Shown here piece after piece: positions 27,180-48,904 of a stretch of 64,000 bases of DNA. Origin of the DNA: Phyllobacterium sophorae. Lineage in GTDB: Bacteria > Pseudomonadota > Alphaproteobacteria > Rhizobiales > Rhizobiaceae. Within the stretch, counting starts at the first letter, position 1. The number at the start of each line of letters is the position of its first letter. Position numbers and translations under genes: made by a program. Under the pieces are notes generated by a model. It ran no database searches, was not told the origin of the DNA, and saw nothing but the letters and a program-made list of their open reading frames with translations. The stretch lies in contig NZ_PGGM01000016.1 in NCBI RefSeq assembly GCF_003010965.1, forward strand, positions 1-64,000, given 5' to 3'.

Positions 27180-27273
27180 GCATGGTTTCCAAAGCAGAAC
27201 CCGTTGACTTTTCGAACCGTTTCTAAAGGTTTACGGGTTATAGCGTCTGGCATTGGAACGATTGGAGCTGCCC

Positions 27274-28695
27274 TTGCGAATTTCTGCGGTCGGAGCTGCG
27301 GTCCGGTTTTTGCCGGAAAAATTGTCACAGCAGCTTAATCCGTGGCTCTTGCGCGTGGATCAGATGCTTGACGGATCAACCGAGCACGCCGTTGCACAGC
27401 GTGTTTCGCTGATCGCGTTTTTCGTGCGCATTGTCAGCGCAGCCATTGCCCTCGTCTCGCAGGTGATTTTCGCACGCTGGATGGGCCAGTTCGAATACGG
27501 CATCTTTGTCCTGGTGTGGGTAACGGTCGTCATTCTCGGCAATCTGTCGTGCCTGGGATTCCAGACCAGCATCATCCGCTTCGTGCCGGAATATCTCGAG
27601 CGCCAGCAACTGGATCACTTGCGCGGCATGCTGTTTACCAGCAAGGCCTTTGCACTGGGCCTGACCACGTGCATTGCGCTGGCGGGCGCGGCTGGCGTCT
27701 ACTTCTTCCGCGAAACGATCGAATCCTACTACGTCGCGCCATTCATGATCGGCTTCATCTGCCTGCCGATGATTGCGCTTGGCGACACGCTCGATGGAAC
27801 GGCGCGATCGCGGTCGTGGGCGTTCGTCGCCCTCACGCCAACCTACATCATCCGGCCGGTTCTCACCTTGCTGGTGATGAGCATCCTGCATATTACCGGC
27901 TTCGCTCCAACTGCGGTAACGGCCGTATCCTCGGCGATCATCGCAACCTATACGACAACGCTGTTTCAGTTGCTTGTCGTCAACCACAGGTTCCGCACCG
28001 TCGTCGCGCCCGGCGCGAGGCAAATCCGCTTTGGCGAGTGGTTTGCCGTCTCGCTGCCCATCTTCCTGGTCGAAGGATTTTTCTTCCTGCTCACCAATGC
28101 CGACGTCCTGATGGTCGGGCGCTTCATGGACCCCGACAAGGTCGCGACCTATTTCGCCACGGTGAAGCTGCTCGCATTGGTGCATTTCGTCTATTTTTCA
28201 GTGAAGGCAGGCGCTGCGCAGCGTTATTCGGAACTGATGCACAGCCATGACAATGTTCAATTGGCGCAATTCGCACGGGACACTGCGCGCTGGACCTTCT
28301 GGCCGTCACTCGGGATGGCAATCGTCCTGCTGCTGCTTGGAAAACCACTGCTCTACCTCTTCGGCGCCCAGTTCACCGATGGCTATCCATTGCTGTTCGT
28401 TCTGGTGATCGGCGTTGTCGCCCGCGCTTCGGTCGGCCCGGCGGAGAGCCTCCTCAACATGGCCGGCAAGCAAAAAATCTGCGCCATGGTCTATGCCGTC
28501 ACACTGATTGTTAACATCTGTCTCAGCATTGTATTGATACCGGTTTATGGCCTCGCTGGCGCCGCATTCGCCACTGCCTTCTCGATGGTATTTGAGGCGG
28601 TGACACTCGCGCTGACTGTTTACAATCGTCTGAACATCACCATGTTCGTGTTTGCCGGCAGGACGAATGCAAGTCCTGCCAAGGAAGAAATCTGA
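27274..28695 (+). CDS. Polysaccharide flippase-like membrane protein (Wzx/MATE fold)
   Basis: The roughly 473-residue protein has about twelve transmembrane segments and the profile of oligosaccharide flippases (MOP superfamily), which move lipid-linked sugars across the inner membrane. The start is uncertain: three in-frame TTG codons occur at 27253, 27262 and 27274. I chose 27274 because GGAG lies 6 bases upstream. Its stop overlaps the start of the next gene in a TGATG, so the two are translated together. No glycosyltransferase genes flank the pair, so the polysaccharide is unknown. Confidence 0.85.
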   Translation: MRISAVGAAVRFLPEKLSQQLNPWLLRVDQMLDGSTEHAVAQRVSLIAFFVRIVSAAIALVSQVIFARWMGQFEYGIFVLVWVTVVILGNLSCLGFQTSIIRFVPEYLERQQLDHLRGMLFTSKAFALGLTTCIALAGAAGVYFFRETIESYYVAPFMIGFICLPMIALGDTLDGTARSRSWAFVALTPTYIIRPVLTLLVMSILHITGFAPTAVTAVSSAIIATYTTTLFQLLVVNHRFRTVVAPGARQIRFGEWFAVSLPIFLVEGFFFLLTNADVLMVGRFMDPDKVATYFATVKLLALVHFVYFSVKAGAAQRYSELMHSHDNVQLAQFARDTARWTFWPSLGMAIVLLLLGKPLLYLFGAQFTDGYPLLFVLVIGVVARASVGPAESLLNMAGKQKICAMVYAVTLIVNICLSIVLIPVYGLAGAAFATAFSMVFEAVTLALTVYNRLNITMFVFAGRTNASPAKEEI

Positions 28696-29981
28696 TGGCA
28701 GCCATACCGCTTCTCGAAGAATTGGCCGGGGGTCCCTCCTCGCAGATCATTGCACAGCTCTCGGGATTCGATCACCCGCACGATGCGGCAAAGCAGATAG
28801 AGGAGACCCTGGGAAATCGCGGCGTACCGCGCAAGCTCTCCGTCTACTCGGCCTCTGCCGGCTTCGAACTGCTCGATGAACTCGAATACCTGACCTACAG
28901 AACCGTCGAGCCCAATATCTTCTTCAATCCGCGCTTCCTGGCGCCGGCCATGCCGCGTCTCGATGACCGGCAAGTCCGTTTCATGGTCATGCGCGACGAA
29001 AATGACGTGAAAAGCCGTCTGCGCTTCCTCATGCCCTATACAATCGAACGGCCCGGCTTCACCGTGTCGGCCTCGATCCTGCGCGCCTGGGCCACACCCT
29101 TTGGCCCCCAGGGCACACCGCTGATCGACAGGGACGATCCTGTCGGCGTACTCAACGATCTGTTCGATATGCTGGCGCGCAAGCACCTCAAATTCCCCGA
29201 TATTCTCGTCCTTCCCGATGTATTGCTGAACCGTCCGGTGGCGCAGCTGATCCGCTCGGTTGCCATGGACCGCAATCTTCCGCTCGTGTCCGTCAATCAG
29301 GTCGAACGCCCGTTCCTCGAAAGCGCCAAGGAAGGCGAGGAATACCTGCGTGATGCGATCGGCCCGCGCCACGCCAAGGAATATCGCAGGCTTTGGCGCC
29401 GTCTTTCAGAAAAGGGCAAGCTGACCTATACAGTGAGCCGCAGCGGTGAGGATATCCGCCTCAAGCTGGAAGAGTTTCTGGCGCTGGAAGCCAGCGGCTG
29501 GAAGGGCCAGCGCGGCTCGGCGATGGCCGTCGATCGTTTCCGCGCCGCCTTTGCCCGCGAAGCCGTCAATAACCTCGCCGCCCGCGATCTGGCCCGCATT
29601 CACACGCTCGAACTTGAGGGCAAGACCATCGCCGTGCTCGTCGTCTTTGTCGAAGCCGGCGAGGCCTGGACCTGGAAGACCGCTTATGACGAGAGTCTGG
29701 CGGCCTATTCACCCGGCGTTCTCCTGATGATCGAGATGCTCAAGAACCACCTTGATGACCCGAACATCGACCGGACCGATTCCTGCGCCGTGCCCGACCA
29801 CCCCGTCGCCTCGCGGCTGTTTCAGGAACGGGAGCCCATCGGCACGCTCGTGATCGGATTGACGCCGGCGGCGGATCGCGCTGCACGGCAGGCAGCGTCG
29901 CAGCTTCACCTCTACCGGCGCACGCAAAATCTTGCGCGTGTCGTCCGGGAACGTCTGCGCGATCTGACGCGGCGGAAATAG
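28695..29981 (+). CDS. GNAT family acetyltransferase, CelD/BcsL type
   Basis: The 428-residue cytoplasmic protein carries an Acetyltransf_6 (CelD-like) domain at about 215-365, with the helical FLALEASGWKGQRGSAM segment and the core TIAVLVVFVEAGEAWTWKTA. Relatives acetylate cellulose or other exopolysaccharides or their precursors. Coupling by a 1-base stop-start overlap to the upstream flippase supports an envelope-polysaccharide role, but neither acceptor nor polymer can be named. Confidence 0.8.
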   Translation: MAAIPLLEELAGGPSSQIIAQLSGFDHPHDAAKQIEETLGNRGVPRKLSVYSASAGFELLDELEYLTYRTVEPNIFFNPRFLAPAMPRLDDRQVRFMVMRDENDVKSRLRFLMPYTIERPGFTVSASILRAWATPFGPQGTPLIDRDDPVGVLNDLFDMLARKHLKFPDILVLPDVLLNRPVAQLIRSVAMDRNLPLVSVNQVERPFLESAKEGEEYLRDAIGPRHAKEYRRLWRRLSEKGKLTYTVSRSGEDIRLKLEEFLALEASGWKGQRGSAMAVDRFRAAFAREAVNNLAARDLARIHTLELEGKTIAVLVVFVEAGEAWTWKTAYDESLAAYSPGVLLMIEMLKNHLDDPNIDRTDSCAVPDHPVASRLFQEREPIGTLVIGLTPAADRAARQAASQLHLYRRTQNLARVVRERLRDLTRRK

Positions 29982-30110
29982 GGGCTTTCCGGAAAATTAC
30001 ACCTGAGCCGCCGCAGTGTGGTAGGCTATCCTGCTAGAAACCGACTTTCATCATCATTGATGGCTGTCCCGCACGGGAACCGGCCACCATTGCTGGAGGG
30101 TTGATCCATC

Positions 30111-30266
30111 ATGCGTATCGCGCTGTTAGCGGCAACGGTTTTGATGATATTAACTGGCTGCGCTTCATCAGGAAATGTCAGTCCGCTGGTGTTCTGCGAC
30201 ACCCCCGGTTCTTTTAAATCCACGGCAACTACCCACTGCACGCCGCGGCTCGGCCACAAATACTAA
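30111..30266 (+). CDS. Small putative lipoprotein, tandem copy 1 (51 aa)
   Basis: A 51-residue frame starting at ATG 30111 after a GGAGGG ribosome site (about 10 bases away). It has a basic start, a hydrophobic stretch and a lipobox ILTGC with the lipidation cysteine at C17. Then comes the core SSGNVSPLVFCD (residues 19-30) and a short tail with a further cysteine (C43). The next gene repeats this plan. I do not recognise the family. The mature part would be only about 35 residues, tethered to a membrane, with two cysteines that could pair. The evidence that it is a real gene is the strong conservation between the copies (see findings). Confidence 0.72.
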   Translation: MRIALLAATVLMILTGCASSGNVSPLVFCDTPGSFKSTATTHCTPRLGHKY

Positions 30267-30307
30267 GACGTCGCCTGCCGCGTATCCGGTCTGAAAGGGT
30301 TGAACAC

Positions 30308-30463
30308 ATGACACGTATTGCGATGCTTTTGGCAGCCTTGTTGATGATTTTGCCCGGCTGCACTTCGTCCGGCAACGTTAGCCCACTGGTATTCTGTGAT
30401 CGGCCAAGCGACTTTGGTGCCAAGGTGTTCACCAATTGCACCTACCGCGTGAACGACTACTGA
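30308..30463 (+). CDS. Small putative lipoprotein, tandem copy 2 (51 aa)
   Basis: The second copy is also exactly 51 residues, starting at ATG 30308 after GAAAGGG (8 bases away). The lipobox is ILPGC with C18, followed by SSGNVSPLVFCD at residues 20-31, and later cysteine C44 in TNCTYRVN. The two genes are 41 bases apart. In the 12-residue core, ten codons differ from copy 1, all at silent third positions, which argues for protein-level selection after an old duplication. The function is unknown. It lies 42 bases before the convergent tRNA-Leu. Confidence 0.75.
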   Translation: MTRIAMLLAALLMILPGCTSSGNVSPLVFCDRPSDFGAKVFTNCTYRVNDY

Positions 30464-30505
30464 ATTTCCGCGAGCAACCAGAAATCGGGCTTTTGCCCTG
30501 CTAGT

Positions 30506-30590
30506 GGTGCCCCCTGCCGGAATCGAACCAGCACTCCTTTCGGAACCTGATTTTGAGTCAGGCGCGTCTACCAATTCCGCCAAGGGGGCC
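30506..30590 (-). tRNA. tRNA-Leu (anticodon CAA)
   Basis: On the minus strand the sequence folds as a class II tRNA: acceptor stem GCCCCCT with AGGGGGC, anticodon stem CCTGA/TCAGG around loop CTCAAAA (anticodon CAA), a variable arm and a T arm with GGTTCGATTCC. The terminal CCA is encoded (30506-30508). A small GGGC-AAAA-GCCC hairpin followed by GATTTC at 30488-30499 may be its terminator. Confidence 0.97.
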
Positions 30591-48718: not shown

Positions 48719-48904
48719 ATGACAAGCCGTTCTATTCTGACGACAATTCTGATGTCGATCGCGATTGTAAGCGCTGTTTCGGCCTGTGGCCGCAAGGGCC
48801 CGCTTGAACCGCCACCGGCTTCGGTTACCTCGATGCCTGGCGAACCGAAAACCGCAACCCCACCTGCGCCCGACAAGCGTTTCATACTCGACCCATTGAT
48901 CTAG
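48719..48904 (+). CDS. LptM-like small lipoprotein (YifL family)
   Basis: A 61-residue protein with a signal peptide and a lipobox VSAC (lipidated Cys at about 23), followed directly by GRKGPLEPPP and a Pro-rich tail ending in RFILDPLI. This short CGxKGPL pattern is that of LptM (YifL), which in E. coli binds the LptDE complex and aids its disulfide maturation. ATG 48719 follows AGGA by 8 bases. It starts 11 bases before lysA, and the same arrangement (lptM-like before lysA) is common in related bacteria. Confidence 0.88.
   Translation: MTSRSILTTILMSIAIVSAVSACGRKGPLEPPPASVTSMPGEPKTATPPAPDKRFILDPLI

What the first reader, a model, noticed from the sequence alone, without database searches (positions are those of the whole stretch)
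30111..30463. Tandem 51-residue lipoprotein genes whose core differs only at silent sites
Two adjacent reading frames of exactly 51 residues each have their own ribosome site, signal peptide, lipobox (LTGC and LPGC) and an identical 12-residue core SSGNVSPLVFCD directly after the lipidated cysteine. In the 12 core codons, 10 differ between the copies and every difference is silent. That pattern is hard to explain unless both proteins are translated and constrained. A third cysteine is also conserved in position (C43/C44). I recognise no family, and such short genes are often missed by automatic annotation.
Basis: seen in the sequence. Interest (0 to 1): 0.72.

Follow-up and report, generated by a model that had tools for sequence, protein, structure and literature searches.

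The report
Phyllobacterium small lipoprotein gene family
Two neighbouring tiny genes are real members of a previously unlabelled family of small cell-envelope lipoproteins, found in every Phyllobacterium genome examined and not detected elsewhere, in which selection keeps the stretch just after the lipid anchor almost unchanged.

Summary
Two 51-residue frames (30111-30266, 30308-30463) each carry a signal peptide, a lipobox and the same 12-residue core; 10 of 12 core codons differ, all silently. They are real genes. The genus is Phyllobacterium (named loci). All 20 held genomes of the genus carry the family, 33 copies in all. A 70-77 aa copy upstream of nadA is present in 20 of 20, so it is probably the original. 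The pair lies downstream of a bspF-type gene, next to tRNA-Leu, in an interval whose size differs widely between species. Purifying selection is strong (dN/dS 0.03-0.20 in 20 of 25 chosen pairs, 5 saturated) and strongest just after the lipidated cysteine. No convincing relative was found outside the genus, in phages, plasmids or family libraries. Best mechanism (inferred): a small outer-membrane lipoprotein whose post-acyl segment, probably closed by a Cys-Cys bond, docks onto an envelope partner, as LptM and phage exclusion lipoproteins do. It is not LptM: an LptM-type gene lies elsewhere in this window. Moderate interest: a new, apparently genus-restricted small-protein family, partner unknown.

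The parts
30111..30266 (+). gene a: 51-aa predicted lipoprotein (lipobox LTGC, Cys17; Cys29 and Cys43 conserved)
   Evidence: intact a-orthologues in 3 other genomes; a forms one clade 100/99
30308..30463 (+). gene b: 51-aa predicted lipoprotein (lipobox LPGC, Cys18; Cys30 and Cys44 conserved)
   Evidence: b groups with the b genes of 3 genomes and with single copies of 3 more, 98/99
30165..30200 (+). conserved core SSGNVSPLVFCD of gene a
30365..30400 (+). conserved core SSGNVSPLVFCD of gene b, differing from a at 10 silent sites
30505..30589 (-). tRNA-Leu (CAA) whose 3' end faces the pair; one border of the variable interval
28695..29981 (+). GNAT-domain gene over the NCBIfam cut-off for 'BspF'; the other border of the interval

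Best explanation
Genes a and b encode small secreted lipoproteins of a family found only in Phyllobacterium so far. Shown: signal peptide plus lipobox by inspection, three invariant cysteines, strong purifying selection, a syntenic copy by nadA in every genome examined, and extra shortened copies elsewhere. Inferred: the first cysteine is acylated and, since residue +2 is Ala, Thr or Ser and never Asp (Lol sorting rule, recalled), the protein goes to the outer membrane. The other two cysteines form a disulphide loop. The near-invariant residues after the anchor dock onto one envelope partner, such as an outer-membrane barrel or its assembly machine, while the C-terminal tail is dispensable. 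Copies a and b keep only anchor and docking loop, so they would serve the same site as extra or differently expressed subunits.
For: 20 of 20 genus genomes carry the family, with the nadA-side copy in 20 of 20. dN/dS 0.03-0.20 in 20 of 25 chosen pairs, 5 saturated. Among the 20 nadA-side copies, pN/pS is 0.43 in the signal, 0.12 from the lipidated Cys to just past the second Cys, 0.24 to just past the third Cys and 0.44 in the tail (pairs not independent). Cys columns invariant in 33 of 33. a and b both lack the GGDSP tail. In LptM, the ten residues after the acylated cysteine are the resolved, docked part, and the N-terminal region alone suffices for co-purification (PMC12644819, passages). 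Rtp45, a phage lipoprotein of about 6 kDa with a disulphide, binds the periplasmic side of LptDE (PMC12685063, passages).
Against: No partner, localisation, acylation or disulphide has been measured. The AlphaFold model of b is poor (pLDDT 57.7, pTM 0.23), so no structural match was sought. No significant sequence relationship to LptM or to phage lipoproteins was found. A strongly conserved short peptide could equally bind metal, peptidoglycan or lipid.
Confidence: 0.4

Rival explanations
1. Host-encoded receptor shield: extra copies work like phage superinfection-exclusion lipoproteins (Llp, Rtp45), binding an outer-membrane phage receptor from below and blocking adsorption.
For: Same size class, lipid anchor and cysteine pair as Rtp45. 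Extra copies lie downstream of bspF in 6 of 20 genomes, with tRNA-Leu seen on the far side in 4 of those 6, in an interval of variable size.
Against: No match in 50,697 phage records or in IMG/VR; no PADLOC model for the 3 members tried. The nadA-side copy is present in 20 of 20 genomes and slow to change, unlike typical defence genes.
Confidence: 0.12
2. A diverged LptM-type subunit of the LPS translocon, duplicated within the genus.
For: Small lipoprotein with greatest constraint just after the acylated Cys, as in LptM; 5 of 27 members show a weak NCBIfam LptM score, best E 0.29.
Against: PF13627 is not among the families matched by any of 27 members at E up to 5. The genome has its own PF13627 match over the cut-off, in this window at 48749-48814. 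LptM has no conserved cysteine pair (recalled).
Confidence: 0.1
3. A stand-alone bulk envelope lipoprotein (entericidin- or Lpp-like filler, stress-induced) with no specific partner.
For: Very short; weak scores to Lpp/OprI (14 of 27, best E 0.03) and YgdI/YgdR (11 of 27, best E 0.012) models.
Against: For gene a, the YgdI/YgdR match covers residues 3-22 and the Lpp/OprI match 6-23, i.e. signal and lipobox, far below the cut-offs (13.7 of 42 and 12.2 of 43 bits). A near-invariant core and three invariant cysteines are more than a filler needs.
Confidence: 0.2
4. Conjugation or type IV secretion lipoprotein (TraV, TrbH or VirB7-like) left behind by a mobile element.
For: Weak NCBIfam scores: TrbH in 4 of 27, best E 0.0041; TraV in 1 of 27, E 0.045. 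Copies a and b lie next to a tRNA gene.
Against: TraV 14.4 bits against a cut-off of 44.75. The pair is bordered by bspF and tRNA-Leu, not by transfer genes. No match in 72,556 plasmids. The nadA-side copy is in 20 of 20 genomes.
Confidence: 0.05

Closest known systems
LptM (YifL, PF13627)
   Same: About 6 kDa lipoprotein with its conserved, docked stretch directly after the acylated cysteine and a mobile C-terminal part (PMC10567701 and PMC12644819, passages)
   Different: No PF13627 match; conserved cysteine pair; found in one genus only; an LptM-type gene is separate at 48749-48814
Phage superinfection-exclusion lipoproteins Rtp45 and Llp
   Same: Small anchored lipoproteins; Rtp45 has a disulphide Cys30-Cys38 (PMC12685063, passages)
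   Different: Phage genes; this family has no match in the phage collections and is chromosomal in every genome of the genus examined
Rz1-like outer-membrane spanins
   Same: Short lipoproteins; weak PHROG scores, best E 0.079
   Different: Matched stretches lie mostly in the signal and lipobox part; no lysis genes seen by eye beside the copies looked at

Membership tests
LptM (PF13627) | PF13627 motif after the lipidated cysteine | tested here: not met
   PF13627 matched by 0 of 27 members at E up to 5; the genome's own hit is elsewhere, 32.6 bits against 27.3
LptM (PF13627) | binds LptD/LptE | not testable with these tools
   needs co-purification or a complex structure
Superinfection-exclusion lipoprotein (Llp/Rtp45) | encoded by phage or prophage | tested here: not met
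   no match in phages with b as query or in IMG/VR with the profile
Superinfection-exclusion lipoprotein (Llp/Rtp45) | intramolecular disulphide | tested here: inconclusive
   two non-lipidated cysteines invariant in 33 of 33; bond not measured
TraV/TrbH conjugation lipoprotein | curated model score and transfer-gene neighbourhood | tested here: not met
   TraV 14.4 of 44.75 bits; TrbH best E 0.0041 in 4 of 27, its cut-off not shown; no transfer genes seen by eye between 20 and 42 kb of the window
Bacterial lipoprotein (general) | signal peptide with lipobox cysteine | tested here: met
   by inspection: lipobox LTGC / LPGC; Cys invariant in 33 of 33, Gly before it in 32 of 33; no signal-peptide predictor was run

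The most novel reading that the evidence does not exclude
Phyllobacterium has evolved its own obligatory outer-membrane lipoprotein subunit: a lipid anchor plus a short docking loop closed by a disulphide. It has spawned tail-less copies in a variable interval beside a tRNA gene, which tune or shield the same outer-membrane machine (LPS translocon or a phage/nutrient receptor).
Probability: 0.15. Interest if true: 0.6.

Novelty: new member of a known kind. Interest (0 to 1): 0.36.

Why it matters
It is a clean example of a short protein family that no searched library models, yet every examined genome of a plant-associated genus keeps it under strong selection. If the docking reading is right, it adds a lineage-specific subunit to an outer-membrane machine and supports a general rule: in tiny lipoproteins, the few residues after the lipid anchor carry the function.

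Tried and rejected
Phage origin: no match in phages or plasmids (b as query) or in IMG/VR (profile; 32 stretches matched a short pattern, none confirmed). Known families: Pfam, NCBIfam and PHROGs gave only weak scores, mostly in the signal part; PADLOC gave none for 3 members; the PDB gave one chance hit, E 1.1.

Relatives outside the genus: weak hits in 4 of 292 other family genomes (E 0.0018-0.01) and 4 of 296 other order genomes (E 0.0012-0.0073). All eight were read (seven, L061): none has a signal peptide, lipobox and Cys pair in place. L061 is the closest look-alike (TGCAGSHSVSPVVVCLRP in a 57-aa frame without a hydrophobic signal); I take it as chance. 0 of 384 others in the class sample at E 0.001. 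Eight genomes of near genera gave 15 hits, best E 0.02; the best local match of 14 of these 15 loci was read and none is a family member. The samples overlap, and only 20 or 15 candidates per genome were scored, so very diverged relatives could be missed. No recognisable copy upstream of nadA in 27 other-genus loci (lipobox filter by script, then by eye). A weak hit downstream of bspF in G010 is a 29%-identical tail match on the other strand, taken as chance.

Regulatory idea: the conserved block upstream of the nadA-side copy was tested as a regulon motif; its 26-bp form occurs once in the window's genome with up to 3 mismatches. I read it as a plain promoter: TTGAA(T/C), 16 bp, then TAAAT in 15 of 20 copies. 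The consensus scanner found no promoter there, nor upstream of a/b.

Structure: the AlphaFold model was too poor to use, so no fold search was run.

Simple recent tandem duplication: a and b as sister groups is rejected (p-AU 0.016, single-matrix model), because b groups with single copies of other species (98/99). All copies downstream of bspF as one clade is not rejected (p-AU 0.073).

Full report
What is there. The frames at 30111-30266 and 30308-30463 are each 51 codons long plus stop. They are separated by 41 nt; a starts 129 nt after the bspF-type gene, and b ends 41 nt before a tRNA-Leu gene on the other strand. Each has a hydrophobic signal and a lipobox-like LTGC or LPGC. The 12-residue core is identical, with 10 of 12 codons differing by one silent third-position change. 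If each of those codons took one random change, the chance that all ten are silent is 2e-7 to 3e-6. Outside the core the copies differ freely: from the lipidated to just past the second cysteine (14 codons) there are 10 silent and 1 replacement differences, in the signal 8.2 and 14.8, and in the next 16 codons 10.2 and 15.8.

Whose genome. Three of its 23 loci come from two records titled only 'Rhizobiales bacterium'.

The family. One protein query found 33 copies in 20 of 20 genus genomes and none in 39 genomes of 39 other genera at E 0.01. In 20 of 20 genus genomes one copy lies directly upstream of nadA on the same strand. It is 70-77 aa, with a tail GGDSP... that a and b lack. Extra copies: the a/b pair beside bspF in four genomes (G000, G007, G014, G019), and a single copy downstream of bspF in two (G017, G005; 1.0 and 4.4 kb away). 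tRNA-Leu was seen on the far side in four of these six (G000, G017, G005, G019); it was not within the stretch held for G007 or G014. G006, G012 and G016 have an extra copy elsewhere. The four pair genomes form one group by their nadA-side copies (99/99). All three cysteines, one Pro-Leu, and the Asp and Pro after the second cysteine are invariant in 33 of 33. A 27-row subset was used for the profile searches.

Outside the genus. Profile searches gave weak hits only: 4 of 292 other family genomes and 4 of 296 other order genomes at E up to 0.01, all eight judged chance or signal-only on reading. 0 of 384 other genomes of the class matched at E 0.001. Eight genomes of near genera gave best E 0.02, and 27 nadA loci of other genera show no such gene upstream. 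Phages, plasmids and IMG/VR gave nothing. The samples overlap and first-look candidates were capped, so 'genus-restricted' holds at this sensitivity only.

Selection. In 25 pairs that I chose, dN/dS (NG86) was 0.03-0.20 in 20; in 5, silent sites were saturated. Across all pairs of the 20 nadA-side copies, pN/pS was 0.43 (signal), 0.12 (lipidated Cys to just past the second Cys), 0.24 (to just past the third Cys) and 0.44 (tail). Constraint therefore peaks right after the lipid anchor.

History of the pair. Gene a is one clade (100/99). Gene b groups with the single copies of G017, G005 and G006 (98/99) rather than with a, and a+b as sisters is rejected (p-AU 0.016). So the two are old paralogues, not a recent tandem duplication; where a came from is unresolved. 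The tRNA-Leu begins 27, 527 and 963 nt after the last aligned bspF codon in G018, here and in G010, and 7.9, 6.2 and 6.5 kb away in G005, G017 and G019. In 17 of 20 genomes the full tRNA is not within 1.5 kb of bspF. The pair thus lies in an interval of variable size at the 3' side of a tRNA gene, a place where integrating elements often insert (recalled).

Expression. Upstream of the nadA-side copy the block CAATCAATTGAAT is kept in 17 of 20 (missing in L009, L017, L019). Its 26-bp form occurs in the window's genome only there. By eye it reads as a promoter, but the consensus scan does not call one. Rfam finds only the tRNA near the pair.

Mechanism. The pattern (lipid anchor, short maximally constrained segment, cysteine pair, free tail) resembles two characterised modes. 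In LptM the first ten residues after the acylated cysteine sit in LptD, and the N-terminal region alone suffices for co-purification (PMC12644819, passages; PMC10567701, passages). Rtp45, a phage lipoprotein of about 6 kDa with a disulphide, binds LptDE from the periplasmic side (PMC12685063, passages). I therefore infer a docking lipoprotein of the outer membrane. The partner is unknown. Membership in LptM was tested and not met: PF13627 matched by 0 of 27 members, while the genome's own PF13627 match lies in this window at 48749-48814. The AlphaFold model is too weak to add evidence.

Literature. Searches for Phyllobacterium with lipoprotein (listing of 15 of 51 papers seen) and for small unannotated lipoproteins of Rhizobiales (none) showed no paper on this family. 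The LptM and superinfection-exclusion papers came from listings. Subscription papers are not held.

Noticed in passing
window 28695-29981: A chromosomal GNAT gene of plant-associated Phyllobacterium scores over the NCBIfam cut-off for the Brucella effector name BspF (850.6 against 775 bits) and follows a polysaccharide-flippase-like gene (27253-28695). Homologues occur in 46 of 59 genomes searched, the window's own included, so the effector label may mislead outside Brucella.
   Followed up: partly
window 29982-30504 and loci L040, L041, L047: The bspF to tRNA-Leu interval varies from about 25 nt to about 7.9 kb between Phyllobacterium species. In L041 it holds frames that look like a metal P-type ATPase and a MerR regulator (by eye).
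   Followed up: partly
window 30263-30583, - strand: A 106-aa open frame antisense to gene b begins inside the tRNA-Leu gene (MAELVDAPDSKSGSERSAGS...); it looks like a common spurious frame read from tRNA-Leu genes (recalled).
   Followed up: no
L031 6526-6584 (upstream of nadA): CTTGAAGC, present after the lipoprotein gene in 20 of 20 nadA-side loci, is followed by a short hairpin and T run (ACGGC...GCCGTTTT) in 18 of 20 (also called by the scanner in L031): perhaps a terminator or attenuator between the lipoprotein gene and nadA.
   Followed up: partly
L061, frame on the - strand: A 57-aa frame in an order-level relative holds TGCAGSHSVSPVVVCLRP, a look-alike of the family core, without a hydrophobic signal. 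Probably chance.
   Followed up: partly
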